The notes under the pieces were generated by a model. The model saw only the letters and a list, made by a program, of their open reading frames with translations. It was not told the DNA's origin and did not search any database. A stretch of 64,000 nt of DNA, taken from assembly GCA_016617855.1 (NCBI GenBank), contig JAECUM010001749.1, positions 1 to 64,000 on the forward strand, read 5' to 3'. The stretch comes from Megalonaias nervosa (Eukaryota; Mollusca; Bivalvia; Unionida; Unionidae). Positions 46,310 to 64,000 of the stretch are shown one piece after another. Positions within the stretch are counted from its first letter, which is position 1. Every line of letters starts with the position of its first letter. A program made the position numbers and the translations under genes.

Positions 46310-46975
46310 AAGATAAGATAAGAAGATAAGAATTCTTTATTTCAGACTACATAGTCCATACATCTAAATTAAAATACGGATATAAAGTAAAACATTGTAA
46401 ACATAAAAGAACATATATATCATATTTACAAGTATACAGACACATCTACAACAATGGACTGTGCCCTGCATTGTTAAGAATGAAATTAAGTGGCACATTT
46501 AAAGAGTAATTTGTTCCATCTACTAATAATATGAGAATTTAAATGAATGTCCTAGTTCCAAAGTGATTTCAATATACAGTTCTCACTATTAGATAGTCTT
46601 GTTATCATTGAGAATACATACTTTCTCATTACTTCCTCAAAACTGAATACATTATAATTTACATTATATTTACATTATGAATACATTATAATTTATAGCC
46701 CAGACCGAGTGTGAAGTCGCTTAGGCTCCCCATGCAAGTACCTAAATGTTTAATGATGACAAAGTGTTAGTAAATTGTAAAGGCAGAACTTTGTTGGCAT
46801 AGGAAGAGTTGGAAATAGATTAAGTATACTTTCCTTTGAAGTGAAAAAACTCCTCCAACTTGTAATGGTATATCTTCCACATAGATTCTGGCTTTTGCAA
46901 GGTCTCATGACAAGAGCATACATCTTGGCATGAGAGGAAATAGTAACTGAAAGGTTCTTACACTTTGCCACTAAT
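46310..46975 (-). mobile_element. nested LINE 3' end with (TTATC)n-like tail
   Basis: On the minus strand a short frame (46971-46750) and a non-coding 3' stretch end in TCTTATCTTCTTATCTTATC, a microsatellite tail like those of CR1/L2-type LINEs. It lies just inside the right terminal repeat of DIRS-like element 2, so it is probably nested. The clade is uncertain. Confidence 0.4.
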
Positions 46976-46982
46976 TCTTACA

Positions 46983-47120
46983 CCTAAGGGGATATCACTC
47001 TGCCTGACCGCCACACAGGTCAGCAGACAACTCTTAGCTCCCTTTAGCTAAAAGTAGTATCTGGGAGGGCTGGATTTGTTAGGTAGTAGTAGTTCTCCTA
47101 TTGGTATTATGATTGGGTAA
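46983..47120. repeat. DIRS-like element 2, right inverted terminal repeat
   Basis: Runs from TAAGGGGATATCACTCTGCC to GGTATTATGATTGGGTAA, mirroring the left end. Confidence 0.9.
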
Positions 47121-48467
47121 CGAATTTAAAAAAGAAATTGTCAACTCTTAATAAGTCATAATTTTTTGTACATTTTCTTTCCAAACTACATTCTTAGTAT
47201 ACGATAAATAACAATATTCAATGAAATTTTTGATCAATGAAAATGTCAAATAAATAAAAACCAAATAAGTTTTTTATCAAGTGAAATTTGTATTTTAGTT
47301 CTATCATTTAGCTAGGTGTAAGCATAATGATCATAAATGCAATGTGCCCTCTTGTATTCAAACATAAAATGTGTCAATCTACCATAACAGCTATGTCCGC
47401 TAGCATTTTTCTGAGAACCTTATTAAGTGCCAACCATGTCTGATATCTGACTTGTGGAAGTAATTGTTGTATTGTTGCACTGAATTAAAAGCTGACCTCC
47501 TCTGTATTATCACATTAATTGCATCTTTTGTATCAAATAAAGGATGTGGAACAAAAGAAAAGTTAAAAGGCATCATATATGCGTAAGATCTTGTGGTCTT
47601 GGTCATATGTTGGATGAGCTAATTTCAATTGATCAATCGAGCATTGTTATAAATATTATTGTGTATGTAATATAATTAGACTACCTTAAATTAAACTACT
47701 CAGACTTAAATGTTATCAAAGATAGAAAGGGTATCCAAGCAAAATGAATACTTCAAGAAATTAAGAGCTTTGTTTCATATATACGGATCATTGTGGAGAA
47801 GTGAGTTTCAGAAAAATCCTGAATTGGCACTTAGAGATATCATCAAGGATGAGAAGACATTTCGTTATTACTTGCAATAAAATCATGGCATCAAAATTTT
47901 ACTAACTGATGCAGATGATTGTTACAAGAAATAAATGTCGCTTGTTTTTCAAATAAAAGGAAATTTGTTTCATGTGTACCAACAGGTAGTCCGCTTCCCT
48001 GCTTATAGACTCCCTGTTTCAAACTCTGCGATAACATAATAAGCAGGGAACCAGACTAATCAACAACAACAAAATTCAGTGATGTAATACACAATGTTTT
48101 CGCATACACGTGAAGGCTGTTTAAATCAGTTTTGGATAATGTCAACAATCTTTCAGATGCTGAGCATCTTGAAAGTAGATGTAATTTATATAGAACAATA
48201 AACAACTTGTTAGAAAAGCACTTTTTTGAGAATTATTCCCAAAGCATTTATGAAATGAGTATTCAGCCATTAAACAGTGCCATCTCTCCCCCCACCCACA
48301 CCCATGCTGTTTTGTCCAGTGGGGATGGTATAACTTCTTATTTTTCAGAGGTTCTTCAGCAACTCGTGCCCTCGCTTATAGTGTGGTATATGTTTTTGGA
48401 CCACATTGTGCACAAGTTATCAAGGGAGAGGTGTATGCTATGGGTTATGTAAAACTGTATTTCATAG
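47121..48467. other. mostly non-coding; small unrecognised frames
   Basis: A 56-codon plus-strand frame at 47710-47880 (FKKLRALFHIYGSLW, RDIIKDEKTFRYYLQ) is well composed and could be an exon or mobile-element relic. A minus frame at 47606-47400 and a plus frame at 48132-48452 are also unrecognised. A short inverted repeat pairs TCCCTGCTTATAG (about 47997) with ATAAGCAGGGAA (about 48041). Confidence 0.3.
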
Positions 48468-48900
48468 CTGATCTTGTCCAAAATCAAGTTCATTTTCTAC
48501 CGGACCAGAGTCATTGATTCTGGTTTTGTATACAACATGTTTATCTCAGTCTGAGTCCAGAACATTGGAAATTCCCTTTGAAATGATGGATCTGCATGAT
48601 ATTTACCACACTCTGTATTATAAGTTTAGTAACAGACCTTCTAATTATAACTAAGACTTTTCTAGAAATGAACTTTTGGGCTTCATCCTAGTTATTCTTT
48701 TGTGTCTTATTTTTTTTTATATAATCTTGTTTACTAGAAAAATTATTTATTCCTGCAATGATATCTGGGCAGAAATCTTTTATGTTGTTGTATTTAGAGT
48801 CTGATTTGGGTGAAATTATTTACTATTCTCTGGAAATACAAAGTGCTCAATAATATTCTTGGAACAAGACATTAACTGGGAATTATAGTGAATTCAAGCA
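48468..48900 (+). repeat. dispersed repeat, copy interrupted by the viral element
   Basis: Same family as 40290-40790. Similarity ends at TATAGTGAATTCAAGCA near 48900, at the edge of the viral element. Confidence 0.7.
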
Positions 48901-49146
48901 GCGGGGGGGTGAACCCTACGACTTTTTTGAGGCCTTATTTATGAAAAATAAAGGTTCCTACAAAGACTGAAAATAAAGTCAATAATGCTAAACCGAGCAC
49001 ATTTCCATACAGGAAAAAAACCAGACCGCGTCAAGGAAATCTTGTGGGTTAGTTACTTGTTCGTTGACGTGTATTTATGCGACTCCTTTACGTACGCATG
49101 GTCACACCCTCTCTGCTGCTTTAATTAAATAATTATTATATCAATA
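48901..49146. promoter_or_regulatory. left end of the viral element, probable terminal region and promoter
   Basis: Begins with a G-tract and GTGAACCCTACGAC. It ends just before the first gene with AT-rich TTTAATTAAATAATTATTAT. It is the natural place for one terminal inverted repeat and the first promoter, but its partner is not in the window, so this is inference. Confidence 0.4.
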
Positions 49147-50022
49147 ATGATTGGTGAAGCTCACTCAGCAATATTAGCTCGAGAACGATTAGAAGCAATA
49201 CAAAAATATCTTCCACTTTATAACGCCATTAAACAACAACTACAGGCATGTCAACAAACACAAGAAGAATTTGCAGAATCCACAGAAGAATTATTTAAAC
49301 CTATTACAAAGACTACTAAAGGTCTTTTACCTACACTGGAGAAAACCACTGAAGCAACTGGAAAAATAGCAGAGCGAACTAAGAAAACAAAAAAGATTCT
49401 ACAAAAACTTCTGGTTGAAATCGCTGCAGCTCAGCCACCGCCAATGCAAGAAGAAATACAACAAGTACTTGAGAGCGTCGATAAAGTTCGTAAGGAGGTC
49501 GGTGATATAAGGGATATTGTTGCGCTGAAACCAAAACCAAGACCAAAACTACCAGCTCAATTAACCAAAAAGGGTCGTAAGATACTTCGAGAAAACACTG
49601 TAGCGGTTGCCGCAACAGGATATCAACATCGGGATGAATTATTAGATCCAGACACCTTAGATATTCCAGAATCAAAATGGGTTCCTTTTGTATTTCAAAA
49701 GTCTCATAATATACCTAAAATCACTGGTGAATATAAGAATAAATTTGCAGAATTTGAGAGACAAGTCGAAGAGGCTAAAAGAGCGTCATTATCCGGAGAT
49801 ATATTATTGACAGAAAAATCATCATTCGGCCCACCTCGTATTGAGGAAGAAGAAACATCTGGAAGTAGTCTTGGCATGGGTACCAGGGGAAGTGGTCTTA
49901 TTACTCCATGTCCTAACAACGTCCTTGCCGATGTCGATCGATTAGAAATTCTGACTGGTGGAAAACGAGCCAGTAATAATTCTTCAGAAATCATTAATGA
50001 AGCAGCTGCTATTTGTCAATGA
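49147..50022 (+). CDS. coiled-coil virion-type protein, first gene of the element
   Basis: 291 codons, intact. The N-terminal 130 residues are strongly helical and charged, with heptad-like repeats (YNAIKQQLQACQQTQEEFA, TEATGKIAERTKKTKKILQK). A proline and lysine linker (KPKPRPKLPAQLTKKG) and a Ser/Gly-rich acidic C-terminus follow. No enzyme motif is visible. Its position ahead of the capsid genes suggests a structural or scaffolding protein; I do not recognise a named family. The start is the first ATG after an AT-rich leader. The next frame begins about 110 bp downstream, with a 20-codon mini-frame at 50041-50103 between them. Confidence 0.75.
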   Translation: MIGEAHSAILARERLEAIQKYLPLYNAIKQQLQACQQTQEEFAESTEELFKPITKTTKGLLPTLEKTTEATGKIAERTKKTKKILQKLLVEIAAAQPPPMQEEIQQVLESVDKVRKEVGDIRDIVALKPKPRPKLPAQLTKKGRKILRENTVAVAATGYQHRDELLDPDTLDIPESKWVPFVFQKSHNIPKITGEYKNKFAEFERQVEEAKRASLSGDILLTEKSSFGPPRIEEEETSGSSLGMGTRGSGLITPCPNNVLADVDRLEILTGGKRASNNSSEIINEAAAICQ

Positions 50023-50040
50023 TTATTTACAGGCGGTATC

Positions 50041-50103
50041 ATGGATATTAACGTGTATCGGTCCCTCATCGATGAAATCGCCGATGATTATTACAGCGAT
50101 TAA
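50041..50103 (+). CDS. 20-codon mini-frame
   Basis: ATG to TAA frame encoding an acidic peptide (RSLIDEIADDYYSD). It could be a real short gene or a remnant of the next gene's start. There is nothing to decide between these. Confidence 0.2.
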   Translation: MDINVYRSLIDEIADDYYSD

Positions 50104-50130
50104 GCAGTTAGATATAATTACTATAATAAA

Positions 50131-50583
50131 ATGATCATACATACTTCTCAACGTAGACCAACTATGGTCAGGGTGGTAAATTCAAGATTACCTGTATATG
50201 AGACAATTTACGGAGATGGTCTCGGCGATGTTGTTCAGGGCTTATTTTCGAGGATGGCTCCAAAAGTAATACCTGTTGCAAAACAACTCGGCATGAAAGC
50301 CACTGACGTTATTCATGATAAAGGTATTGGCGCTGCTGGTGATGTTGCCAGTAAAGCATTCTCGGTGGTCAAGGATAGACTGGCACGATTAATACGACGA
50401 AAACCTCAGCCAGTAAAATTACCCAGCACTGAAGTGATGCCTGCAAACGTTAGTAAAATAATAAATCAAGCTGCAAATCAAAAACTAGCAGAGTTAGCTA
50501 GTGTACCAATGTCAGAAAAAGAAAAAAATATAACCACAAGTTTGATAGCAGGAAATGGTCTTCGTGTTAGACGAACGCGATAA
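50131..50583 (+). CDS. basic minor virion protein, pVI-like
   Basis: 150 codons, intact. Arginine- and lysine-rich with a central amphipathic helix region (GLGDVVQGLFSRMAPKVIPV) and a basic stretch (DRLARLIRRKPQP). It ends GLRVRRTR. Small basic proteins with an amphipathic segment next to the major capsid gene are typical of adenovirus pVI and its Polinton/adintovirus counterparts, which help membrane lysis or core packing. The gene stops 8 bp before the capsid gene starts. The assignment is by position and composition, not by a diagnostic motif. Confidence 0.55.
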   Translation: MIIHTSQRRPTMVRVVNSRLPVYETIYGDGLGDVVQGLFSRMAPKVIPVAKQLGMKATDVIHDKGIGAAGDVASKAFSVVKDRLARLIRRKPQPVKLPSTEVMPANVSKIINQAANQKLAELASVPMSEKEKNITTSLIAGNGLRVRRTR

Positions 50584-50591
50584 TAATAAAG

Positions 50592-51968
50592 ATGTTCAAA
50601 CGTATGCCTGATCCCGCATTTGACATGGATGCGCCAGTTCTCAAAGATGAGTCTGTATGTGATTATCAGTATTATTCTTATGACGCACGTGTACCTGACG
50701 AACGTGGAAGAATCGAATTACAAGTTCAGGATACAAGCAGATATTTCTTACCCGCTGAGGCATTTATTGAAGTCGAAGGTAGACTTTTAAAACTAGATGG
50801 TACAGATTACGGAATTGGTGATCGAGTTGGTTTAGTCAATAATGGTATTATGGCGTTATTCAAAAGTGCCGCATACATGATTGATGGACGAGATATTGAG
50901 ATTTGTCATAACGACGTCGACGTTGCCACAATGATACTTGGTCTTGCAAGATACAGCGATGATTACTCAATATCAGCTGGTCCATCGATGATGTTTGCCA
51001 AAGACATAACTGATCATCCAGAAAACAGAAGTGTAACACTAAATGCAGCTGGGGACACAGTTGTATCAATGAATGAAAATTTCAACTTGGGATTCGCATC
51101 ACGCCAAGCAATGCTGGGTGACGATGAAAGATTTTCATGTGCGATTCCACTGTCACACATCTTTGGATTCTGCAGAAATGTTAGAAAGGTTATTTTTGGA
51201 GCCAAGCACACAACTGTACTCATACGAAAAAATACCGACGATGATGCAATATGGCACGCTGAAGGAGCTAATGATGCTGCAACTAGAGCACTTCATGGAA
51301 AAGTTACACTGACAAAACTCACATTGTGGACGCCAGTAATGACACCAGCAATATCTGAAGAACAACAGTTACTTCCTTTTATGGACAGTGGCGGTAAGTC
51401 AACGCTATCATGGTTAACAGTGACCACAGATTCTATCCAGAGTAACATTAATGGTTTATTCACATGGCAAATAGCATCACAGCAAGGTGTCTCTGCACCG
51501 CGATATATATTTGTTGCATTTCAAGATGTTACGCGAGTAAACTCACAAACACGAAGTATAATGATATTTGACAAACTCGGCATTACTGAAGTTTCTTTGA
51601 GAATAAATGGACATCAAGAACCAGCCAAGGATATTTTGTTAAATTTTGAACAAAACAGCATTGCACGTGCGTATCATCGTCTGATGACGTTCATGGGGCG
51701 TGATCAAAATGTTGATACTGGTTTACAAATATCCCATCGAGATTTTACAACGCTGTATCAGATCTATTATTTTTCGCTGGAACACTTGGATTTGTTTAGG
51801 CAATCTGTCGTTGATATACACTTTCGAGCTCGTGTGACGCGAGGACCTATTGTTAATTACAGAGCAATCGCCGTTATACTCAGCGATAAAACAATGCTAC
51901 TTGAAGGTGTTGGTGGTCGAATGAAAGTCATTGAAGCTCCAGTAAAAAATATGCAAGCGTTAATTTAA
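50592..51968 (+). CDS. major capsid protein, probable double jelly-roll
   Basis: 458 codons, intact. The sequence alternates short beta-strand-like stretches throughout. It has an early FIEVEGRL strand followed by NNGIMALFKSAAYMIDGRDI, the pattern of Polinton and adintovirus major capsid proteins where a strand precedes an N..I..LF....Y.I.G segment. Mid-protein LSHIFGFCRNVRKVIFGA and TLTKLTLWTPVM mark the linker and start of the second jelly roll. The C-terminus (LRINGHQEPAKDILLNFE, SLEHLDLFRQSVVDIHFRA) fits the last strands. This protein would form the trimeric capsomer. It shows no stop or shift, in contrast to several neighbours. An alternative is another jelly-roll virion protein, but length and position favour the major capsid. 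Confidence 0.75.
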   Translation: MFKRMPDPAFDMDAPVLKDESVCDYQYYSYDARVPDERGRIELQVQDTSRYFLPAEAFIEVEGRLLKLDGTDYGIGDRVGLVNNGIMALFKSAAYMIDGRDIEICHNDVDVATMILGLARYSDDYSISAGPSMMFAKDITDHPENRSVTLNAAGDTVVSMNENFNLGFASRQAMLGDDERFSCAIPLSHIFGFCRNVRKVIFGAKHTTVLIRKNTDDDAIWHAEGANDAATRALHGKVTLTKLTLWTPVMTPAISEEQQLLPFMDSGGKSTLSWLTVTTDSIQSNINGLFTWQIASQQGVSAPRYIFVAFQDVTRVNSQTRSIMIFDKLGITEVSLRINGHQEPAKDILLNFEQNSIARAYHRLMTFMGRDQNVDTGLQISHRDFTTLYQIYYFSLEHLDLFRQSVVDIHFRARVTRGPIVNYRAIAVILSDKTMLLEGVGGRMKVIEAPVKNMQALI

Positions 51969-51988
51969 ACGCCAGGAATATATCATAA

Positions 51989-52183
51989 ATGTCATACCAT
52001 CACGTTAGTGTCAGTCTGACTTCTGGTCAGATCAAAAAACTGCAGTCGGCATCAGCGAAAAACTCTGGAACAAAAATAACTATAAAACAAGAACAAATCA
52101 CAGGTGGTCCGAATAAACTATCATTGACAGAACGCCAGCTCAATCATTTTAATAAATCTAAGCAATTAAAGAAAGGTATATGA
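51989..52183 (+). CDS. small conserved-type virion protein
   Basis: 64 codons, basic. It opens with an amphipathic stretch (SVSLTSGQIKKLQSA) and has a Gly-Pro turn followed by KLSLTERQLNHFNKSKQLKKG. The layout recalls the small repeat-containing proteins next to capsid genes in related elements. Its function is unknown. It begins 21 bp after the capsid stop and ends 12 bp before the next ATG. Confidence 0.5.
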   Translation: MSYHHVSVSLTSGQIKKLQSASAKNSGTKITIKQEQITGGPNKLSLTERQLNHFNKSKQLKKGI

Positions 52184-52195
52184 GTAGATCTTTCC

Positions 52196-52437
52196 ATGGA
52201 TGCCATCAAAGACGCAGTCAAGACTGGTGGTATGTTTCCACTTCTTGCAGCTATTCCAGCGTTAATAGCCAATGCAGCCCCAGCTGTTGGAAAAGCAGCT
52301 GTGTTAGGTGCTGTTGGGACAGCTGCTGGAATGGCATTAAAGAAAGCAACAGGAAAAGGAATGAAAAAAAAGGAAAGGGTCTGAGACTTCCAGGGTCTCG
52401 GCACAGGAGCGGATTAAGAATTCCAGGGACTCGTTAA
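52196..52437 (+). pseudogene. hydrophobic virion peptide (adenovirus pX/pVI-like), frameshifted
   Basis: The ATG frame gives 62 codons: an N-terminal KTGGMFPLLAAIPALIANAA hydrophobic stretch, a Gly/Ala-rich segment and a Lys-rich end. The GG just before the hydrophobic run resembles an adenain-type cleavage site. At a run of eight A (52363-52370) the frame ends shortly after, while the neighbouring frame continues to 52437 with GLRLPGSRHRSGLRIPGTR, which looks like the natural C-terminus. The break is either a decay mutation in the A-run or a programmed shift. Membrane-active peptides of this kind accompany capsid genes in adenovirus-like elements. Confidence 0.55.
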
Positions 52438-52445
52438 TTTTCCCA

Positions 52446-52850
52446 ATGTCTAATTTTGATTTACTTGATGCTGTTAGGCGATTAAATATAAAAAATTTCA
52501 GAGGTGATTTTATGCGTGATCAATTACCGAAAAATCCAAACTCGATTGAAACCGGTATTATTAATCTCGATAAAAACTCTGGTCTGATTGATTCACGTGG
52601 AATTGTTTATTTCGATTCGTACGGACTGGCACCACCAAAAGAATTTTTAAAATATGTCAACACAGTACAAAGTACTGCGCTTCAAAATATTCCAGTGTGG
52701 TATTCAATGCTACCAACACAAACATTAACGGATCCACCAATATGTGGCCGTGAAGCACTAGCAGTACTTGATGCTGTATCAAGATCTGCGAAACCACCTC
52801 ATAAAACTGTACACGAATACATGAGTACACGCATTTTAAATAATCGCTAA
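52446..52850 (+). pseudogene. adenain-like maturation cysteine protease, His motif missing
   Basis: 134 codons open from ATG at 52446. Residues 18-28 (FRGDFMRDQLP) and 35-42 (ETGIINLD) match the N-terminal part of adenovirus/Polinton proteases. YFDSYGLAPP at residues 55-64 is the acidic-residue motif, with D57 as the candidate triad member, and ICGREALAVLDA at 99-110 places C100 as the nucleophile. The expected GTHWV-type segment carrying the catalytic His, normally just before YFDSYG, is absent; the sequence passes directly from NSG to LIDSRGIVYF. The enzyme cleaves virion precursors during maturation. Without His it would be inactive, so a small internal deletion or rearrangement is inferred. 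The length is well below the usual 200 or so residues. Confidence 0.65.
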
Positions 52851-52857
52851 TCATATA

Positions 52858-53850
52858 ATGGTAGATATTTACGGAAGATCAACTAAAACTAAAACCCAAC
52901 AAGCACCATCCGAAGACTTACTCAAGCGAGTAACAAGGTAGATCAATGATGAATTATCTGACCTGCTCAATCTTGCCAACGTTGATCCAAATGAACTTGT
53001 TATATTTCAAAACCATGAAGGAAAATTGAAGACGAGTGATATTTCAATCAACGATATTATTATTCGTAATCGATTATCGCGAGAAGGTCTTGTTGCTGTA
53101 TATGACAAAGAGGGTAAACTTGTTCCTAGTGTTGTTACTCCGTTGTCGATCCGAGATAGTATATCTGAACGAGTGTTAAAAGCTGGCAATGTAATGAACG
53201 GCATCATTAATATGAACAACAATAAAATTATTAATGTAGGTGAACCGACGGATAATCTCGATGCTGCAACAAAAAAATACGTCGACAAGAACAATATTCC
53301 GATGACAACTTCATTGTCGACGATCAATGATGGAATAACCGCATTTAGAACTAATTTTTTTATCATATACAACTGTTTATGAATTTTCGCAGAAACGTAA
53401 ACAAAACCACTAATGAATTTTTTGGAAGTCCACCAATCATTGATATTAAACTCGCAGACGTTAACATGAAACTCAACGATGTAATCAGTGGAATTCCTAA
53501 TATTGTTCAAAAAATTAATATGATTAAAATTCCTCACGCGCAGATCTACAATAGTATACACAGTATCATCAGGATCATCAACGTGGACACTGAAAAATAA
53601 CACTATCAAACATACTGCAGAGGTCACTGGTGTGTACAGGCTGTCCGTATTTAGTTCTGCAAAATTTAGGATATTTGCTACATTTCCATGGCGTCATTCT
53701 ACCGATAATTTTTCTGGAACTGTATCTATTATATTAAATAAAGATACCGAAGAAACATTTACACTGGAACCATCCAATAAGAAAATAACCACAGCATCAT
53801 ACTGGTGGTGTCAGGAATTTGTTTCTGAAACACCTCCATTGTTTTATTAA
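52858..53850 (+). pseudogene. fibre-like receptor-binding protein with tail-fibre motif, disrupted
   Basis: The natural start is ATG at 52858. The frame meets an in-frame TAG at about 52939 and then reads open from 52942 to 53380. At about 53190-53285 it carries MNGIINMNNNKIINVGEPTD followed by NLDAATKKYVD, the repeat unit known from phage tail fibres. The frame then shifts: 53379-53600 and 53632-53850 hold the continuing shaft-like sequence and a beta-rich, aromatic-rich end (GVYRLSVFSSAKFRIFATFP, SYWWCQEF) suitable for a fibre head. A fibre binds the host receptor from the capsid vertex. At least one stop and two shifts break this copy. The position between protease and penton-like gene fits a vertex protein. 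Confidence 0.6.
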
Positions 53851-53871
53851 ACAACGACTTAATACAGTATA

Positions 53872-54336
53872 ATGATAGACGTTCAGCGATACAGATACGA
53901 TCAAGTAACAACATGGCAGAATAAACTAAAAACCATCATCGATGATTGCACAGCAGCGATAGTGAAAATATCGTAAACGTGCGGTTGTCATTGATGTAAT
54001 CGTTTATTTGGCCTCCGCGATTGTTGCTGGAACCAGCGTAATATTATCAACGTTGACGATGACAACACCGATCGTTGTAACAATCGTTATTTCATCAGCA
54101 ACCACGATCGCGTGTATTTTTAATATTATTGCAAAGAAGATAAATACGTGCACGAATGAAAAATTGAATGAGTACGCGATAAAAAAAGCATACTGCAATG
54201 ACCACATATTCCAAAATTATCGTCGATGATTTCTTCATCGCTCAACAATGGAATAATTACCAATGAAGAATTCAATATTTGCGTGAAGATCTATAATGAA
54301 GTATTCGATGATGATGACGAAATATCAGGGATTTAG
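53872..54336 (+). pseudogene. membrane protein with helical tail, frameshifted
   Basis: An ATG at 53872 opens a short frame of about 33 codons (RYDQVTTWQNKLKTIIDDC). The following frame (to 54229) has two hydrophobic helices, AIVAGTSVILSTLTM and PIVVTIVISSATTIACIF, followed by a charged segment (AKKINTCTNEKLNEYAIKKA). A third frame then continues to a stop at 54336 with SSMISSSLNNGIITNEEFN and an acidic end. Together they give a plausible two-helix membrane protein with a long cytoplasmic or virion-interior tail, broken by two shifts. Its function is unknown. Confidence 0.5.
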
Positions 54337-54403
54337 AATAATGAAGTATAAATAATGACTACTACAGCAAATCATCGTTAACACTGCTCCGGTAAAAACC
54401 GCA

Positions 54404-55780
54404 ATGATATCAGCGAGTTCAACTAATCCTGAATTCAGTATTAATTTTCCAACTGCAATACCAGCAAGTGAAATAGCATTAGCGCAATTACGGGTTTATT
54501 ATAGTTGGCCAAATATTAGATCAAAATCATTCGGTGGACTACAACCAAATAAGTTTTTGGTATTTGCAAATAAAAACAAACCCGATGGAACTCCTGACTG
54601 GCAAGTAGTCAGTATACCCACAGGAAGTTATCGGATAAAACAGATCAATGAATTCCAGCACAGAATTAAATCCATCACAGGAAAAGAATCAAAGATAGCC
54701 ATTACCGTCCATGAACCAACGCTGTCATCCACGACAGAAATATTGTCACTGGATTACGGCGTTGACATTTATCAGTCCTCAATCAGATCAGTGCTAGGAT
54801 GGCCTGAAATCGCGCCGGAATATCAAAGACCACCAGAACTGGTCAAAGATGAATTTCTCATAACAGAGAAAAAATTTATAAAATTTCCAGAATATTATCG
54901 CAGGAAAAGTCCTTATGATCTTAATCTTTCTTGGTTAGGACCCGACTATCCATCATTTGATACTGACAGCAATGGAACAAAAATTCCTGAGTATCCTCAT
55001 TGGATAAATTATGTGGAATTGAAACCAATAAAAAAAGATATTTTTCTTAAAGGATATATTGACACCTATGTTACTCTGATTGATCTTGAATACAATAATA
55101 AAATTACTGATTTAAAGAATCTCTTTTTGTCATTATCACAAATCTACAGCGAAGGTACAAAACAACAGATCATTGAAACAATACTACATTTACATAAAGT
55201 TAGATCAAATCTGAATATTATTAATCGATCCATTATCTTAAAAGTGATTAAGAGCGAAGCAGCAATACAAGACGTTTTTGTTGATCATTATAAAATAACC
55301 AGGGATATATTACCAACATTTGTGATACCAGAACTCGATACGGATGGATTAAAAAAGAGACTTACTGATGTTATTGACAATTATTTTCCCAAGATCCTTG
55401 AATCATGGAGAAAAATAGGTCCACCATCAAGTATTCTCCGATACAACAATGATCCATATGGTGGTGGCTGTCATGTTTTGCCGGGAATTGTAAATATAAC
55501 ATCAATGATCATGATCAATCTAGTATGTGACGCCATCAACGGCATTTATCAAGTTGACACTGAAAAATCCAATCAGGCCCAACAAGGATACATTCTGTAT
55601 TCATTTACACCTCACATACCCCCAGGCTATTTGATTGTATCAGAACCAATCAACGTTGTTTATCTATGTTGTCATAGTCGTCTTTTATCGTGGATACATT
55701 TCAAACTTACTGACCAGAATGGCCACTTGCTCGATCTTAGGTCTGAAACGTTAAGTATAAATCTGTATGTAAGATTGTAG
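54404..55780 (+). CDS. penton-like minor capsid protein
   Basis: 458 codons, intact from ATG at 54404. An upstream ATG at 54356 in another frame suggests the original start lay slightly earlier and one shift occurred there. The N-terminus (AQLRVYYSWPNIRSK, IPTGSYRIKQINEF) and C-terminus (HSRLLSWIHFKLTDQNGHLL, LSINLYVRL) have the split jelly-roll look of single-jelly-roll penton-type proteins. A large middle insertion (residues 130-350), partly helical, separates the halves. Such proteins close the five-fold vertices of the capsid in Polinton- and adenovirus-like systems, and the fibre-like gene nearby fits a vertex complex. The family is inferred from the terminal pattern. Confidence 0.6.
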   Translation: MISASSTNPEFSINFPTAIPASEIALAQLRVYYSWPNIRSKSFGGLQPNKFLVFANKNKPDGTPDWQVVSIPTGSYRIKQINEFQHRIKSITGKESKIAITVHEPTLSSTTEILSLDYGVDIYQSSIRSVLGWPEIAPEYQRPPELVKDEFLITEKKFIKFPEYYRRKSPYDLNLSWLGPDYPSFDTDSNGTKIPEYPHWINYVELKPIKKDIFLKGYIDTYVTLIDLEYNNKITDLKNLFLSLSQIYSEGTKQQIIETILHLHKVRSNLNIINRSIILKVIKSEAAIQDVFVDHYKITRDILPTFVIPELDTDGLKKRLTDVIDNYFPKILESWRKIGPPSSILRYNNDPYGGGCHVLPGIVNITSMIMINLVCDAINGIYQVDTEKSNQAQQGYILYSFTPHIPPGYLIVSEPINVVYLCCHSRLLSWIHFKLTDQNGHLLDLRSETLSINLYVRL

Positions 55781-55930
55781 AGAGTCATCGTAGAAAACAC
55801 CGGTGACAACGTCCTTGACAACGTCACCGAGTAAAAAAAAATGTTCCCGTCAACGTTGTCTGGGGCGCTCAAGCAAAAACAAATCTGTCAATGAATTATT
55901 TCTTTTTATCATCCTTGACTAAGTCCGTGA
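55781..55930. other. convergent intergenic region with GGTGAC/GTCACC inverted motif
   Basis: Lies between the stops of the plus-strand structural block and the minus-strand block. GGTGACAACGTCC and TTGACAACGTCACC sit about a turn apart and can pair in part through GGTGAC and GTCACC. It is a plausible transcription-end region for both blocks, but no AATAAA signal is claimed. Confidence 0.3.
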
Positions 55931-56473
55931 TTACATCACGGGGGTCAGAAATTCTTGTTTAGCCGGTACCACAGTCACGGTGACACTATTGGTTTCATTG
56001 TCAACGTCACTACAGTCACTTTCACTGGTGACAACGTCACTATGATTAGAGCCACACTCTGTGTTATCCTTCGCCAGTAACTCTTCCGTCATCAACTCCG
56101 TCGGTGACACAGTCACTGACATAATATCTCTCAACTGTTTTACGTTGGCGTGTACAATTTTTTTCGTTTCGTATTTGTGAGATAATTCTGACCTAACTGC
56201 TTCAATTGAATGTGCCACAGGAACAAATAATTTCACCTGCGTGTCTGTAATTGCTGCCAACGACTGTAACATCGCCTGTTGGATCAACTTTATGAATCTA
56301 TAATCAGAGGGCAGCGTATACCTATTCGATGATCGCCGAAGTTGCAATGATTCAAAATCGCTCATAATTTTTTCAGGATCAAGTTTATTAGATATTTTTA
56401 TACCTTCGCGTTGTAGTTGCTTGATAGCAGCAATAATAGTATTAATATTTTCATGATTCATTATATAATACAT
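55931..56473 (-). CDS. unrecognised minus-strand gene of the viral element
   Basis: 180 codons, intact. The N-terminal two-thirds is helical and charged (NTIIAAIKQLQREGIKI, YRFIKLIQQAMLQSLAAI). The last 50 residues are acidic and Ser/Asp-rich with repeated Val-Thr (SDCSDVDNETNSVTVTVVP). There are no enzymatic motifs. It may be a regulatory or accessory protein. It is preceded by an AT-rich stretch with two copies of an AAAATATATTTCTGA word (56487-56528), probably its promoter. Confidence 0.6.
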   Translation of the reverse strand: MYYIMNHENINTIIAAIKQLQREGIKISNKLDPEKIMSDFESLQLRRSSNRYTLPSDYRFIKLIQQAMLQSLAAITDTQVKLFVPVAHSIEAVRSELSHKYETKKIVHANVKQLRDIMSVTVSPTELMTEELLAKDNTECGSNHSDVVTSESDCSDVDNETNSVTVTVVPAKQEFLTPVM

Positions 56474-56532
56474 ATTTGTTTAAATAAAAATATATTTCTG
56501 ATTTAATATAAAAATATATTTCTGAATAAATG
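56474..56532 (-). promoter_or_regulatory. AT-rich promoter-like spacer with repeated 15-mer
   Basis: AAAATATATTTCTGA occurs at about 56488 and 56511. The spacer sits between the HNH gene stop and the ATG of the downstream minus-strand gene, so it probably drives the latter. Confidence 0.35.
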
Positions 56533-57041
56533 TCAACGCGGTATTGTATACTGGAATGTGATTTTTTGCTTAAATTTCTTCGAAAATGCTGATTTAGTTA
56601 TATTATCTGCAACAGGTCGCACTGAAGGTATGCAAATGTCAAAATACTTAACAGCAAAAGTCATCGATGGGAAGATTATTTTTTTACCTGTTTCTGTGTT
56701 TGTGGATATAACGGACTTAGGAGATTTATTACCATGACCGGTTCTTCCGAATTTACAATTCTGACTTTGTGTAACGATATGTAAATTTTCCAAAGAATTA
56801 TCTCTCGGATCTGAATTGATATGATCAACTACAAATCCGTCTTTGATCGGACCATAAAAACACTCGTAGATGAATCTATGATAGAGATAATTTTTATTTT
56901 TTTCAGCGCTAAACACAATATATCCAGTATTAATAATAGATCCATTAATTGGTCTCTTGATTTACAGTTTCTGATTATACCACTAAGAAATGCCAAGTAA
57001 TTCTTAATGATGGAATGTCTCACAAATTCATTTTGTTCCAT
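56533..57041 (-). pseudogene. HNH endonuclease (homing-type), one frameshift
   Basis: The natural start is ATG at 57041 (MEQNEFVRHSIIKNYL), and the reading then shifts near 56950-56960 into the frame that ends at 56533. The latter frame carries YLYHRFIYECFYGPI, then GFVVDHINSDPRDNSLENL, the HNH_3 core with H32 (DHIN) and the downstream Asn/His positions, followed by HIVTQSQN. C-terminal sequence includes a NUMOD-like helix (SMTFAVKYFDI). Such nucleases are common passengers in large DNA viruses and phages. It follows the small Cys-rich gene at 57053-57292 with an 11-bp gap, so they look co-transcribed. The catalytic core itself appears intact. Confidence 0.75.
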
Positions 57042-57052
57042 TTATACATAAT

Positions 57053-57292
57053 TCATTCTTCTAAATGATTATTTTGAAATCTAACCAAATAATCCTCTAT
57101 GGTTTTTAACGGAGATTCATTATTATATTTTTTATCGTAATATCGTTTAAGCTCTCTGTATTTCTTACCACCGCATTGTATGCCTGAAACTTTGCATGTG
57201 GTAACCACAGAATTCATTTACGCATGATTTGTTACAACGAGAAGAAAATCCCATCATAAGCCAGTTGCATTTGTTATTTGCTTGTATCATTA
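57053..57292 (-). pseudogene. small Cys-rich (zinc-finger-like) protein, frameshifted
   Basis: ATG at 57292 opens a frame with CNWLMMGFSSRCNKSCVNEF followed by CGYH, a C..C..C..C..H arrangement suited to zinc binding. The frame ends near 57167, while a neighbouring frame continues as GIQCGGKKYRELKRYYDKKY and so on to a stop at 57053. One shift near 57180 explains this. The finger may be the DNA- or RNA-binding partner of the HNH gene next to it. No named family is recognised. Confidence 0.45.
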
Positions 57293-57340
57293 TATATATA
57301 ATTAAGGTTTAATTAAACATATATTTGCCTTAATTATAGT

Positions 57341-60248
57341 ATTGAGGAATTTGAGAGATTATCCGCAATTGCACCTTCCAGAGCAAGATTCGATCTTGAC
57401 AAACTCAATGACTTTGTCATCGGAAAATACTCAATGCAAGACCTAGCTTTGATGAATGATGATATAACCAATCGTATTCGTGAAGCTAAGAAGGAATTCC
57501 GGGATGATGGTGCTACTCATACTTGGTCAACATTTAGGATCAGAGATATCATCGATTCTAGAATGAATGAAAAATGAGGACGAAGTATTATCAATTACCT
57601 TGATAATCAGCGATATATTATTCTGATCAAATTTATCATGCAGACAGATGACGGCACTTGGATTATCCGTGACAAACGTGAACCTGTACGCTTTACTGGA
57701 AATAATACTGTTATATTGGATAAAAAATCCAAGCCCGGTGTACTGACTGGTATTGATAAACCGTATTATGAACGAGCATATCCTGTAACCGCAGTTGTTT
57801 ATGCGATATATCCGCTAAATGATAAACCCAGCGCTGATGATCTCAAACCGATGAAATTTTCCTCAACGGTGACTCCGTCACTGTCGACGGAGTCCTTGAC
57901 AGAGTCAAGGGGGCTAAATTGTGTAGCTGAGCGAGTTACAGAACATTTCAAAAAAGCGGTACGCGGAAACGGTTTAACATATCTAAGACATAAAAAATAA
58001 GCGAGTGGGCAGAAACAGTTAAAAACACTGGAGCATCTATCAGCGACGTCACTAAACTAGAAAAACAATTAACATTTCCAATCACGGTGAAAACAATAAC
58101 GGAAGAGATTTTATACCTGCCGAAATATACAAAAAATGGAGCCCCCATAATGCTCATTGATCATAACGCACACACATGGACCGTGGCAGTGACAATATTT
58201 CCACGAGACAGAACAGTTAAATTCTACCACGGTGTTATATTTGACGTTATCAATGATATTAGTAAGAATGACCCTGTGTCCATGTGGTTATTTAATAGTT
58301 CCGATGATGAAAATTATGATCAGTTTGTAAAACCTAATGGAGAAATTTATCGTACAGAATCTCTCCACGAGGAAATGAAAAATCTTGCTTGGAAATATAC
58401 CCGTGACATAGTCACCATCGAACAATTACTAAGTAATTGTTTCACCGTTCCATCGGTTGCGGCTCACATTGCTCAGGAGAAAAATTCATGGAAACCTACA
58501 AGATGGGAATTTCTTGAAGACATTCAGCGCAGTTGTGTCGAATACGGATACGGTGGATTATGGAATACTCGACACAATTACGGTGGCTTTATATCAATTG
58601 ATATGGTAGCATGTTATCCTGGAAGTTTTCTTGGATACGGAGAATGTTCCAAATACTTTGCATGGTTTGGACACCCCCGACACTTGATGACCAGAGTTGC
58701 AATAAACGGACCATTACCTGATTTTGACTTGACCGGATTTGCTTGTATAGAGTCAATCGAGTTTTGCAGGGATCTCCATCCGATTGTTTATGCATGGAAG
58801 ACATTTCTCAGAGCGACATTGGGCTCCAATAGTATTGTTACAATATATGCTCGATGTAAAAATATTAATGCCATTGAGCATAACTGAAGCCATTATATCG
58901 TATCGTCCACAGAAACAAGTTTGGTTACCACAACCAGACAAATTTGATGCGGAAAGTGACGTCAGGGAAAAATTTCCTGACCTTGGCAAGGATGATATTG
59001 CTAAACCTATCAGTAATGTGTCTACGTACAAAAAGAAAATAATGAGAAAATTGCCAAAGATCTTGGTAGGAAAATAATTGGTAAGTTTACTCAGGGTGGT
59101 GAGTGTGATCATAAACAAACATGTACAAGATTAATCATGGATGATGCTGAACTTGATTTTATAATCATTGATACAATGAAAAAAAACACATTTATAAATC
59201 GGAGTAGCGCTTGCCTATCGAACGGGAAAAATTTAGGTACAATTGTGAGTTATACTGATGGTGAATCACCGCAGTTTACTCATTTAAGATCTTCCATGCT
59301 CGCGTACATTTCGATAAATTTAACGTTGATGATAAACAGATTCCTTCGTTACGAGGTCAGAGTTGTCACAGATTCGTTTAATGTAGATAAAAAATATTTA
59401 GATTTGATAAAATCGCTACTTGCTAATAATGAATGGGGATCATGGAGAATAAAACGCGAAAACATCCTTGACTATTCTAAATCCGCAGACGTTAAAATCG
59501 CAGAGAAATATTACAAGAATAACAATCAGATATTAGCATCGACGGCACCATCTGTATTTGATCCGGTATCCCTGCATAAAACTGTTTATCTCAACGGGCC
59601 TGGAGGTTCTGGAAAAACAACACGTGCGATTGAATTATTTAGAAACACAGACATGATTGCTTTAACACCCACACACAGGCTCGCCAGAGAAACGAAACAA
59701 CGAGGAGTAAAATCGTGTATGTATCATAGTTTTTTCAGATGGTCTGGAGGTGATGATTGGACTCCAGCGCGAATGGGTGATAAATATATACCCCGGATAA
59801 TCATCTGTGATGAAATTTGTACAGTTTCGTTGGCTGTTATTGAAAAATACCGCTGTGATAATGTGTGGTGATCATGGTCAACCACCACCCTTTGTTGGAG
59901 AGTCTCCAGACAAATGGTTAAGCGCATTTGTGGATTATTATGAAGAAATAACCGATGATCATAGAGCTATTGCTGATACCCTGAAAACGTTTAAAAGATT
60001 AATTCGATTACAACCAGATATAATACAATGTGAGATAGCGCGTAAGGTAATTCCGGAAACTCCTGTGAATGATTTTTGGAATTCGTGGACACCAAATGAT
60101 TTAATAGTTGCGAGTAGAAAAATAGTTCATGATACGTTGCAAGAAAAATTATTTTTGTTACATAAAGAAAAATTTTCAAATCTACCTGTACCATTGTGTT
60201 ATCGCCCGGCAGATACTTGACGACAGAACATTGATGTTGAAATTCCAG
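57341..60248 (+). pseudogene. family B DNA polymerase fused to SF1 helicase, interrupted by Gypsy insertion
   Basis: The N-terminal part starts near 57341 without a clear ATG and meets an in-frame TGA at 57575. Frame 57638-58000 continues the N-terminal domain, then shifts. Frame 58087-58887 holds the polymerase motif A (SIDMVACYPGSF, residues 170-181), followed by a further shift. A segment at 58870-59077 and the frame at 59137-59871 hold the RIIGKFTQGG-like motif B region, then RVVTDSF (motif C, residues 75-81) in the same frame as Walker A GPGGSGKTT (154-162) and Walker B IIICDE (221-226). The next frame (to 60220) has CGDHGQPPPF, helicase motif III. The frame passes a TGA at 60218 and is cut by the LTR at 60249. 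Polymerase and helicase thus form one long protein. It would replicate the viral genome. At least four shifts and two stops break it. Confidence 0.8.
60245..60248. repeat. probable target-site duplication of the Gypsy element (CCAG)
   Basis: The two solo LTRs each have a 4-bp duplication, so the four bases before this LTR should recur just after the other LTR, which lies beyond the window. It is unverified here. Confidence 0.45.
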
Positions 60249-61214
60249 TGTTACGTATCTGCTCGTTCAAAGTAACACAAAGAAAGAGTGAAGACAACAA
60301 GCTTTGTAAACTTTAACAAAAATAATTTATTTCCCTAGAAAACACGGTGAAAAGGTAAAAATATGAAACAAGACATAAGATTTACGAAGAAGATCCAAAA
60401 ATATGTCCTAAAATTGTGAAAAACACTTAAGTCCTGTGAATACACAGTTCTAATTTGATATAGACTGAATCTCAGTTCCGTTCCAAGATGGCGGATGATG
60501 ACGTCAGACGAAGGCTGACACAAAATGTCCAGAATTTTCACTGAATCACAAATTGTATTGTTCTGCTCCAATTTAGAAATAATTTCAACAAATGTCTTTG
60601 TCCAAAACCAGTAGGGTTGTTCTCCAGGGAAAATAATTATTTAGAAAGTAGATGAGGTACAGCTACCACCACTAACAATACACATGTTGTTCCTCATACG
60701 TATGAATGAACAAACACCTCTTTCCAGCACAGAAATACCTTTTCCTTAAGGTATTATAAACTCTACAAGATGTTATGATGTGACTCTCAACTATGACTGA
60801 CTACGACTACGACTGAAAATTTCTTACAGGTAACTGAGCATTTAAAACAAGCTAATACGTCATTTCATGTACACATGCACGAAGGACACGTGTGATTTCG
60901 AAATCACACCTGGGCATTACAAAAGCGTAAACAAGTATAATTAGTAATGACGTAGTTACAGCCAATCATTTACACAGCTTTTCCCGACTGTTTACTTGCA
61001 ACGACAAACTATCATACAAAAATCGTGCTTACACGAGTCACATTTACGTTTTAAATAAATACGATGTTTTAACAAACTATTAGACCCATGCAAACATACT
61101 CATCATAATAAAAATAACTACATTTAATGATATAAAAATAAAATAAAAATGAAACAAAGAATTAGAAGAATTTAAATTTTAACACTTATGTAATTTAACT
61201 ACAGGGTCGTAACA
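60249..61214 (-). repeat. 3' LTR of the Gypsy element
   Basis: The 966-bp unit begins TGTTACGTA and ends CGTAACA. It contains the CRE palindrome TGACGTCA at 60499-60506 and, just before it, AAGATGGCGG, a YY1-like motif that the two solo LTRs have lost or vary. Same family as 2192-3131 and 27627-28556. Confidence 0.95.
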
Positions 61215-61225
61215 CTTTCCCCCAT
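61215..61225 (-). other. polypurine tract
   Basis: On the minus strand TGGGGGAAAG directly abuts the LTR end TGTTACG, the position and composition of a plus-strand primer. The gap to the RNase H stop at 61357 is untranslated. Confidence 0.8.
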
Positions 61226-61356
61226 AAAGAAAAAAGAAAGATTTATGTAATAAAGCTTTCTTTTTTACCAGATGTAAACTGTACATGAGGTAAAACAAAT
61301 TTACATAAGAAGAACTCTTATGAATTTACACAAAGGTGTCTATGAAAATGACATTT

Positions 61357-62761
61357 CTATACACGGGAAAGTGCATCTGCAATTAAATTGTCTTTTCCTT
61401 TAATGTGCCTGATATCAAGATTGTACTCTTGCAAAAATAAACTCCATCTCAACAGTCTTTGATTTTTATTTTTCATTCTGCTGATGAAAGTAAAGGGGTT
61501 GTGATCACTAAACACAACAACCGGAGAAGGAGCCGAGCTAACATAAACTTCAAAATGCTGTAATGCTAGCATTAAAGCCAAGCATTCCTTCTCGATTGTT
61601 GAGTAGTTTCTTTGGTGTTTATTTAATTTCTTAGAGAAGTAACACACTGGGTGTTCAACACCATTTTTTGTCATCTTGAAGCAAAACTGCTCCAACCCCA
61701 ACATCACTTGCATCCACAGATAGTTTGAATGGTTGACTGAAATCTGGAGCTGTTAAAACTGGTGCACTTTTAAGTATGGCCTTTAATCTATCGAAAGCCT
61801 CTTGACATTTTTCAGTCCAAAGAAACTTTTTTTTCTTTCTCAACAAGTTTGTCAGAGGTTCAACAATATCAGAAAAATTAGAACAAAATTTGCGATAGTA
61901 CCCAGCCATACCCAAAAATCGCATCAGCTGTTTTTTACTGACAGGCACAGGAAATTCAGAAATAGCCTTGACCTTAGCATCTATAGGTTTCATTTGACCA
62001 TGTCCCACAATATGTCCTAGAAAAGTAACACATGCACGGCAGAACTCACTTTTAGATAAATTAATAGTCAAATATGCATCCGTGAGTCTGTCGAAGAACC
62101 TCCGAATCATGGCTAGATGTTCTTTCCAGGTGTTGTTGTAGATGATGACATCATCAATATAGGCATCACAATTGTCTCGACCAAAAGTAATCATATTCAT
62201 AAGGCGTTGAAAAGTACTTGGAGAACCCTTCATCCCAAATGGCATTACTTTATACTGGTAGAGTCCATCTGGAGTCACAAATGCCGAAATTTCTTTTGCT
62301 CTTTCCGTTAGTGGAATTTGCCAAAAACCCTTCAGGAGGTCGAGTTTAGTGACGTATTTGGCATTTCCAATTTTGTCGATACAGTCATCGATTCTCGGCA
62401 ATGGAAATGAGTCTGTTTTTGTCACACTGTTCACCTTCCTATAATCCTTACACATTCGGAAAGTTTTATCCGGTTTCAGAACAAGAATGCACGGTGAACT
62501 CCAATCACTCTTAATGGGCTCTATAGAATCATTTTCCAGTAAATACTGAATCTCTTTTTTCATGTATTCCTGTTTAAAAGGATTCATTCTGTATGGGTGT
62601 TGTTTCATGGGTTTTGAATCAACTATTTCAACGTCGTGAAAAATTTTGTTTGTCCTTGTAGGCACGTCTGGAAACAAGTGCTCATATTCAGACAATACTT
62701 GTTTAAGTTCACTTTTTTCTTGTTTTTGTAAATGAGAAAGTTTCTGGTCTAGATTTTCCAT
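61357..62761 (-). pseudogene. Gypsy reverse transcriptase and RNase H
   Basis: The frame from 62761 (368 codons) has the RT domain: WSSPCILVLKP, KLDLLKGFWQIPL with D141, KVMPFGMKGSPSTFQRL, and the catalytic YIDD at residues 201-204. It runs into RNase H (LSVDASDVGVGAVLL) and then breaks at about 61680 by a frameshift. The other frame (61713-61357) continues with YSTIEKECLAL (E), VVFSDHNPF (D) and ADALSR, all RNase H motifs. All catalytic positions are preserved across the two frames. It follows integrase, not preceding it, on the coding strand. Confidence 0.9.
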
Positions 62762-62920
62762 AACTTTGAATTCCGAAGATTTGTTGTTCCAAGATCTGAT
62801 GAATCCAACAGAATTCTTTCATTCAAATCCTCAGTTGGTGGGACAGGTACAACTAAATTAATTGCATGATTTACCTGGCTATTTCTTTTAAAATAGCATT
62901 AATTTACTTAGACCAGAGTA

Positions 62921-63619
62921 CTAATTATTATAATTTAACTCATTCATTTTCTTCTTTACTTTGTAAGGGCCATACAATCTAACTTGAAGAAAATTCTGCA
63001 GAATGAGCAAGAGAGAATGGACTTTATTACAGGACTCATATATTCTCTCTAGTATACTTTGGTGAAACCATAGTTTCACTTTTGACTTGAACTGCTGAAT
63101 GCCAAATTCAAGTATAACAAGCTGGAACATTCCAGACTTGAAATTTGACCTTTGACCAGATTGAACAAATTTGAGAAGGCCAAATTGAGTAAAATTCCGC
63201 AACGGAATTACCTTTGGAAAACTTGTTGACGCACACTTGATGGCCAACAAATTTTGGTTACCTGACTTGGTCTTTGGTAAGTTGTTAGTCCTAACACAAT
63301 CTCCCATAGTTCTACTGAATGGTTCGTCAAATGCAGGAATTGGCTGCAGATGAGCTTTAGGTATCTTTTGATTTGGTTTTCCTACCATTTGACAAGTATG
63401 ACAAGATCTACAAAACTTGCACACATCACTTTTAATTTTTGGCCAATAGAAGTGAGTCAAGATCTTGTGATACATTTTATTTATCCCTAAATGACCAGCC
63501 ATAGGAGTTTCATGGGCCAAACTAAGTATTTCCTGTCTGTAAGGTTTCGGAACCACAATCTGATATTTTACTGACCATTCATCACCAGCAGGTACCTCGA
63601 GAGGTCTCCATTTTCTCAT
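62921..63619 (-). pseudogene. Gypsy integrase, shortened
   Basis: The N-terminal zinc finger is intact: H36, H43 and C73, C76 in LAHETPMAGHLG and CRSCHTC. The first catalytic Asp is at residue 107 (MGDCVR). The second catalytic position reads QSGQRSNF, with Gly in place of Asp, and the following region up to the end is shortened relative to the usual core. The protein stops after about 232 codons. It lies upstream of reverse transcriptase on the coding strand. Confidence 0.85.
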
Positions 63620-63993
63620 AAGGACTTTTTTTTGATGAAGTAACAGACAGGTACTTCAGTAGCTTCAGTTTCACTAACAGCCCGCTGAAACAAACAGGAG
63701 ATCTCAGGATTCTTCTCCTGTTCGACGACAAGTGATTGTCGTTTATCACCCTGTTCAGATAAAAGAGAATGAGTATTCAAAAGAGGATCACTATGATCAA
63801 TACCTTTTGACTGATCCAAATTAGAAGTGAAAGTGGCCTCATCAAAAGCCTGACCAATACAAGTGTCAGCTAAAGGAATACTTTCCTTATCAAAATCATT
63901 CTCAAGAGCTTTCTTTGCCATAGCTCTGGTAACTGCACAAGCTGGGAATAAATCAGGGATTTCTTTTTCAATAGGATCAACTTTCTGATCCAA
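63616..63993 (-). CDS. Gypsy polyprotein segment upstream of integrase
   Basis: A 125-codon open frame that enters from beyond the window edge. It holds VTRAMAKK, acidic stretches and, at its end, CLFQRAVSETEATEVPVCYF, which is the usual run-up to the integrase zinc finger. It overlaps the integrase frame by 4 bp in another frame. No protease motif is seen in the window. Confidence 0.75.
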   Translation of the reverse strand: MDQKVDPIEKEIPDLFPACAVTRAMAKKALENDFDKESIPLADTCIGQAFDEATFTSNLDQSKGIDHSDPLLNTHSLLSEQGDKRQSLVVEQEKNPEISCLFQRAVSETEATEVPVCYFIKKKSL

Positions 63994-64000
63994 AGAAGGC

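What the first reader, a model, noticed from the sequence alone, without database searches (positions are those of the whole stretch)
48901..60248. Endogenous Polinton/adintovirus-like DNA virus with an unusual gene set in a host genome
One compact block carries a probable double-jelly-roll capsid protein, a penton-like protein, an adenain-like protease, a fibre-like protein, an HNH nuclease and a DNA polymerase-helicase. Capsid and penton frames are intact while the protease, fibre, membrane and replication genes are broken. The set combines adenovirus-like virion logic with a replication module unlike that of classic Polintons. It could be an undescribed animal-virus lineage or a member of a group known only from genome fragments.
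Basis: partly seen in the sequence, partly recalled or inferred. Interest (0 to 1): 0.9.

Follow-up and report, generated by a model that had tools for sequence, protein, structure and literature searches.

The report
Capsid-bearing DNA virus massively endogenized in mussel
The block is one copy of a 15-kilobase Polinton-like DNA virus, with capsid, packaging and integration genes and a fused polymerase-helicase, whose genes occur thousands of times in a bivalve-type (probably freshwater mussel) genome and bear the mark of selection.

Summary
The block is one integrated Polinton-like virus (PLV). It starts at 48897 with a 224-bp terminal inverted repeat (TIR). At 60248 it is interrupted by a younger Ty3/gypsy retrotransposon. 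It resumes outside the window at contig 66262 and ends at 70242, with the same 5-bp target duplication (ATTCA) at both ends. Net length is about 15.3 kb.

The capsid frame matches Pfam's double-jelly-roll family. The replicase is a PolB palm fused to a superfamily-1 helicase, the type described for PLVs, Tlr1 and transpovirons, not the classical Polinton/adintovirus enzyme.

The host genome (2.19 Gb; by one host gene probably a unionid-related bivalve) has 8,120 near-matches to a capsid probe and 8,832 to an integrase probe (reversed controls 0). The largest counts I saw in print are 3,251 and 2,535 capsid genes, in protists. Capsid and ATPase genes show purifying selection across copies (dN/dS 0.24 and 0.17; 0.87-1.48 out of frame), like integrase and polymerase. 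A virion-making life during the expansion is therefore likely, not shown.

The parts
48892..48896 (.). 5-bp target-site duplication ATTCA (left); its twin is at contig 70243-70247, outside the window
48897..49120 (.). left terminal inverted repeat (AGCAGC...GGGTGAACCC ... CACCCTCTCTGCTGCT), 224 bp; 17 mismatches in 223 aligned positions to the right TIR (contig 70011-70242, 232 bp), plus gaps
49147..50022 (+). ORF1, 291 aa, coiled-coil-like (by eye and weak coiled-coil Pfam hits), function unknown, median dN/dS 0.30
50131..50583 (+). ORF2, 150 aa, probable minor virion protein (inference from position); weaker constraint (dN/dS 0.44)
50592..51968 (+). major capsid protein, double jelly-roll family, frame intact, 458 aa
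51989..52437 (+). broken frame of a small basic/hydrophobic protein (probable minor virion protein, inference)
52446..52850 (+). adenain-like cysteine protease remnant; lacks the THW stretch that six of seven sibling copies keep
52942..53850 (+). fibre-like protein, broken into pieces; first piece matches phage tail-fibre families
53966..54229 (+). hydrophobic (probable membrane) frame
54404..55780 (+). penton-like protein, 458 aa, intact; homologues with conserved ends and a variable, sometimes absent, central insert
55931..56473 (-). unknown frame, 180 aa, no Pfam or PHROG family over chance; not searched further
56533..56961 (-). HNH_3 homing-type endonuclease frame
57317..60248 (+). protein-primed-type PolB palm fused to superfamily-1 helicase, broken into pieces; C-terminal part continues at contig 66258-66824 (outside the window)
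60249..64000 (-). Ty3/gypsy LTR retrotransposon inserted into the viral element (LTR 60249-61214; twin at contig 65292-66257; TSD CCAG); not part of the virus

Best explanation
The block is one integrated, decayed copy of a Polinton-like virus with a PolB-SF1-helicase replicase, in a bivalve genome that carries thousands of copies of its genes. Shown here: TIRs and a 5-bp target duplication; an rve integrase, A32-type ATPase, double-jelly-roll-family capsid protein and polymerase-helicase fusion (palm and helicase in one open frame in a sibling copy) in one unit; mass copy number of gene probes; purifying selection on capsid, ATPase, integrase and replicase. Inferred cycle: the fused polymerase-helicase copies a linear genome; the ATPase packages it into a double-jelly-roll capsid with penton and fibre; the adenain-like protease matures the particle; the PLA2-like domain may help entry; the integrase inserts the genome at 5-bp staggered cuts. 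The family amplified while its virion genes were still being used, probably by repeated particle-borne re-integration in the germ line, and many copies then decayed.
For: Element ends: 7 of 8 copies with a readable candidate left and right end have identical 5-bp flanks. Gene content. Motifs of palm A/B/C and SF1 helicase lie in one protein and are kept in most of 32 aligned relatives. Probe counts: MCP 8,120, integrase 8,832, ATPase 5,646, polymerase 2,157, reversed controls 0 each. Selection: median dN/dS ATPase 0.17, S1H C-term 0.21, S1H mid 0.22, MCP 0.24, INT core 0.24, palm pieces 0.30, with shifted frames 0.67-1.48 for the same pieces; MCP over 8 full-length copies 0.15-0.32. Clade with Sinanodonta proteins.
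Against: No structure could be predicted, and sequence profiles of MCP and penton find no solved capsid, so the fold rests on Pfam. Protease identity is weak (PF00770 E 0.028, below cut-off; adenain E 0.43). TP and vOTU domains were not tested. No virion, transcript or expression evidence. No relative in IMG/VR viral contigs. ORF2 (0.44) and the integrase C-terminal piece (0.49) are less constrained. Purifying selection can also reflect a purely intracellular particle stage. Copy numbers rest on 32-base probes, not on whole elements; the polymerase probe gave only 2,157.
Confidence: 0.85

Rival explanations
1. A classical Polinton/Maverick or adintovirus: integrase plus exonuclease-bearing protein-primed PolB, with a helicase gene acquired nearby.
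For: Shares rve integrase, A32-type ATPase, DJR capsid, adenain-like protease, TIRs. Element size and TIR length fall in the range given for vertebrate Mavericks (PMC8097293 passages).
Against: Palm and SF1 helicase lie in one frame. In four of four long relatives the only Pfam models over cut-off are helicase/AAA models; PF03175 is not hit even at E 10, while PF03175 polymerases in the same genome are separate frames, many of 1,366-1,367 aa. TSD is 5 bp, not the 6 bp given for Mavericks.
Confidence: 0.08
2. A capsid-bearing transposon that no longer makes transmissible particles: it amplified inside the genome only, and the capsid genes are relics.
For: Thousands of probe matches in one genome. 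The polymerase-helicase or protease region is broken in the window copy and in many inspected stretches. No relative found in IMG/VR viral contigs.
Against: Capsid and packaging ATPase are as constrained as integrase and polymerase across copies. Capsid probe counts are similar to integrase counts (8,120 and 8,832).
Confidence: 0.25
3. Assembly contamination by a free virus or a parasite of the animal.
For: Related short contigs occur in environmental data.
Against: Copies lie inside contigs with TSDs and this one is interrupted by a retrotransposon; probe matches number in the thousands. Relatives are annotated in Sinanodonta and Potamilus genomes.
Confidence: 0.02

Closest known systems
PLVs / Tlr1 elements with pPolB-S1H ('Tlr1-like helicase')
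   Same: Fusion of protein-primed PolB palm and SF1 helicase, HNH at its C-terminal end (here below Pfam cut-off), rve integrase, packaging ATPase, DJR capsid (PMC11071308 passages)
   Different: Those described in the passages I read are from protists and transpovirons; this one is in a bivalve-type genome, with very many copies, a PLA2-like gene and 5-bp TSDs
Polinton/Maverick and adintovirus
   Same: Virion gene logic, integrase, TIRs, size (12.7-24.6 kb for intact vertebrate Mavericks)
   Different: Replicase type, 5-bp instead of 6-bp TSD; a separate classical PF03175 polymerase family exists in the same genome
Glomeromycote and sacoglossan (Elysia) genome proteins, unnamed
   Same: Same palm-helicase fusion family, 30-45% identity in these named hits
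   Different: Other branches of the tree; the mussel clade is separate with 100% SH-aLRT (midpoint root, long-branch warning)
Protist genomes with thousands of PLV capsid genes (Paulinella 3,251; Polarella 2,535)
   Same: Mass endogenization of PLVs (PMC10120064 passages)
   Different: Animal host; more than twice the count, but by a 32-base probe rather than by gene

Membership tests
PLV of the pPolB-S1H (Tlr1-like) type | DJR major capsid protein | tested here: met
   PF21738 4e-18, 66 bits vs cut-off 27; 33 of 33 members of the alignment; fold not modelled
PLV of the pPolB-S1H (Tlr1-like) type | PolB palm fused to SF1 helicase in one protein | tested here: met
   palm motifs A, B, C and helicase motifs in single proteins, conserved in most of 32 relatives; native 667-aa frame in a sibling copy
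PLV of the pPolB-S1H (Tlr1-like) type | exonuclease domain absent; TP and vOTU domains present | not tested
   needs structure models, tool off; PF03175 not hit in 4 of 4 relatives fits but does not prove it
PLV of the pPolB-S1H (Tlr1-like) type | FtsK/A32-type packaging ATPase | tested here: met
   Pox_A32 2e-11, over cut-off
PLV of the pPolB-S1H (Tlr1-like) type | penton / single jelly-roll minor capsid | tested here: inconclusive
   conserved penton-like frame and 15 homologues but no Pfam or PDB match
PLV of the pPolB-S1H (Tlr1-like) type | Ulp1/adenain cysteine protease | tested here: inconclusive
   sibling frame: PF00770 E 0.028 below cut-off; ASFV S273R 0.027 and adenain 0.43 in PDB search; motif pattern in sibling copies; window copy itself no Pfam hit
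PLV of the pPolB-S1H (Tlr1-like) type | integrase and TIRs | tested here: met
   rve 8e-10; TIRs and 5-bp TSD
Polinton/Maverick or adintovirus | stand-alone pPolB with exonuclease, PF03175 | tested here: not met
   contrast
Polinton/Maverick or adintovirus | 6-bp target-site duplication | tested here: not met
   5 bp in 7 of 8 copies; the eighth unmatched; 6 bp from PMC8097293

The most novel reading that the evidence does not exclude
Freshwater mussels host an undescribed animal branch of pPolB-S1H Polinton-like viruses that stayed a particle-forming virus while seeding thousands of germ-line copies, leaving the heaviest load of double-jelly-roll capsid genes yet seen in an animal. It may still circulate.
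Probability: 0.4. Interest if true: 0.88.

Novelty: new variant of a known kind. Interest (0 to 1): 0.72.

Why it matters
PLVs with the polymerase-helicase fusion were, in the passages I could read, a protist (and transpoviron) affair; here one sits in an animal in numbers above the protist records I found. That makes a long-standing question testable in one genome: are Polinton-like elements transposons with capsid genes, or viruses that integrate? Thousands of copies give statistical power to ask whether capsid genes are selected at every round of amplification. The same genome also holds a seemingly recent burst of classical PolB frames and a second group of capsid frames, so competition between such elements could be studied in one animal.

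Tried and rejected
Structure prediction of the capsid: tool switched off, so no fold search was run. PDB profile searches for capsid and penton gave only chance hits. IMG/VR scan with the capsid alignment: 23 pattern matches, none confirmed as a relative. Inverted repeats at the element's ends were not found by the repeat tool within 44001-64000, because the right TIR lies outside the window; comparison of copies found them. The idea that a second subterminal repeat is a different terminus was dropped once the outer AGCAGC...TIR was found beyond it. The polymerase probe uses window letters, some of them uncommon in other copies, and probably undercounts. A mark-recapture estimate from contigs shared by the capsid and penton lists (4 shared, of 92 and 91 contigs) was dropped for the probe counts. 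The first capsid comparison read three of eight copies in the wrong orientation; it was redone and its distances are not used. The codon test of the S1H C-terminal piece was first run one base out of frame (value 0.78) and repeated in frame (0.21). The left TIR length was first taken as 225 and corrected to 224.
Full report
WHAT IS THERE. The window lies on contig C1465 of a 2.19-Gb, 54,709-contig genome. Frames of 458 aa at 50592-51968 and 54404-55780 are open. The first matches Pfam PF21738 (double jelly-roll-like) with 66 bits against a cut-off of 27, and all 33 members of the alignment built from the window protein and 32 of its 46 homologues match it too. HNH_3 is found at 56533-56961 on the minus strand. 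The frame at 52942-53382 matches phage tail-fibre families (best 5e-07).

ENDS. I fetched 20 left-side and 18 right-side stretches of other copies and aligned them to the window. Seventeen of 18 right-side stretches align to the polymerase-helicase region and 15 of the 18 stop at 60247 or 60248. At the next base a gypsy element begins: its 966-bp LTRs at 60249-61214 and contig 65292-66257 differ at 8 bases and are flanked by CCAG, and its RT domain and integrase zinc-binding domain lie in the window. Other copies resume in step at contig 66258-66273, and many run to about 68990. The right TIR of this copy lies at contig 70011-70242 (232 bp) and the left one at 48897-49120 (224 bp); both are flanked outside by ATTCA. 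They differ at 17 of 223 aligned positions, with 11 gap columns. In 8 copies I could read a candidate left and right end; 7 have identical 5-bp flanks (C1465 ATTCA, C6823 GGAGT, C4029 ATACG, C36275 TTCCT, C6040 TGTGA, C195 TCAAA, C325 GGTTT) and one (C51616, with nested or rearranged ends) does not. In the other fetched copies one end or both were not read. Some copies have longer, rearranged subterminal repeats.

GENES BEYOND THE WINDOW (contig coordinates). End of the helicase with an HNH-like tail, 66258-66824 (+), below Pfam cut-off. rve integrase, 66952-67731 (-), interrupted by a stop, PF00665 8e-10. PLA2-like with DUF5679, 67822-68442 (-), PF08398 1e-12. A32-type ATPase, 68323-68958 (+), 2e-11.

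REPLICASE. A native 667-aa frame of a sibling copy holds palm motif A (DM..CYP), motif B (IGKFTQG), motif C (TDS) and helicase motifs. Over 32 proteins these are kept in most rows with letters at the site, for example the motif C aspartate 32/32 and the Walker A GK 32/32. The change of the first aspartate of motif C is what PMC11071308 describes for this type (passages). Of 86 homologues the ones with an organism name are from Sinanodonta woodiana, Elysia crispata and E. marginata, glomeromycote fungi (Diversispora, Cetraspora, Gigaspora, Racocetra) and one bacterial-symbiont bin (possibly host DNA, inference); most carry no name. In a tree of the query and 52 of the 86 (quick method, long-branch warning) the window family, two Sinanodonta proteins and 8 environmental ones form one group with 100% SH-aLRT. 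The capsid tree of 47 rows (the window, one copy, and 45 of 46 homologues; P0042, a short Potamilus model, was left out) again joins the window family and Sinanodonta in an 18-row group at 100/100 (careful method, long rows flagged).

HOST. No species name is given. A Sinanodonta gene model that fuses a penton piece to a CABIT-domain gene (P0060) matches two neighbouring stretches of one contig here at 71-72% identity in its non-viral part, so the host is probably a bivalve in or near Unionida. This rests on one gene.

NUMBER. Probes of 32 bases with up to 3 mismatches gave: capsid 8,120, integrase 8,832, ATPase 5,646, polymerase 2,157; reversed controls 0 in each. If every capsid site were a full 15.3-kb element this would be about 124 Mb, 5.7% of the assembly; several of the inspected copies are interrupted or deleted, so that is an upper figure for those sites. 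Bellas et al. give 3,251 capsid genes for Paulinella and 2,535 for Polarella (PMC10120064 passages); vertebrate Maverick numbers in PMC8097293 are at most in the hundreds in the passages I saw.

INTACTNESS AND SELECTION. Of the 92 best-scored capsid copies 11 have no stop inside the match; others carry only the natural stop at residue 454-455, as in 2 of the 8 copies read, so 11 is a minimum. Pairwise dN/dS among those 8 copies is 0.15-0.32 at dS 0.10-0.29. Over the fetched pieces (several rows come from the same contig; pairs with dS up to 0.05 dropped; many capsid rows cover only about the first 100 codons) the medians are ATPase 0.17, S1H C-term 0.21, S1H mid 0.22, MCP 0.24, INT core 0.24, palm pieces and ORF1 0.30, PLA2 0.34, HNH 0.40, ORF2 0.44, INT C-terminal piece 0.49. 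Ten of these pieces read one or two bases out of frame give 0.66-1.74 (the first polymerase piece, HNH and the INT C-terminal piece were not run out of frame). Because post-insertion decay pushes the ratio up, real constraint was stronger (inference).

PENTON AND PROTEASE. The penton frame has 15 homologues, of which 12 were aligned: N- and C-terminal parts are conserved and the centre is variable, absent in P0051 and P0052. In this genome its full-frame copies are 62-79% identical, against 84-90% for the capsid, though each list shows only the best-scored copies. In the window the protease frame lacks the THW stretch that siblings L002 and L004-L008 show; L003 has lost that stretch altogether in the bases read. 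Family assignment is below Pfam's cut-off.

LITERATURE. Ten searches of a library that lacks most subscription papers showed, in their listings, no report of pPolB-S1H PLVs or of such numbers in a bivalve. PMC11071308, PMC11071296, PMC7805220, PMC12721341, PMC10120064, PMC10294476, PMC4642659, PMC8097293, PMC10175614 and PMC12220804 were read as passages only; the 2016 paper on the fusion cited there was not held. PMC10120064 says cnidarian capsid genes were the only metazoan ones outside the main Maverick-Polinton group in its data. I could not place the present capsid against that group directly.

VERDICT. Known kind of virus, new in host, scale and combination as far as these searches show; virion function during amplification likely but unshown.

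Noticed in passing
other contigs of the same genome (e.g. C34627, C22605, C54206): A separate classical PF03175 polymerase (exonuclease plus palm): 75 scored copies, many with the same score, open frames 708-1,408 aa with many of 1,366-1,367, one palm match of 75 with a stop inside. Looks like a recent burst of a true Polinton.
   Followed up: partly
other contigs of the same genome (e.g. C41566, C41224, C3885): A second group of DJR capsid frames, often 510-540 aa, scoring higher on PF21738 (85-101 bits) and mostly without stops among the 126 scored.
   Followed up: no
window 19175-19428: Four copies of a 64-base unit whose letters read like a reverse-transcriptase YADD motif (reading by eye).
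   Followed up: no
window 35000-46000: Two GC-rich stretches (up to 46% and 44% against about 32%); three frames tested there hit no Pfam family.
   Followed up: partly
contig 69400-69560 (L048): A dispersed repeat found in either orientation in several other copies of the element, SINE-like by eye.
   Followed up: no
P0060 (Sinanodonta woodiana gene model): A penton piece fused in annotation to a CABIT-domain host gene, either a model error or an exonized viral piece.
   Followed up: partly
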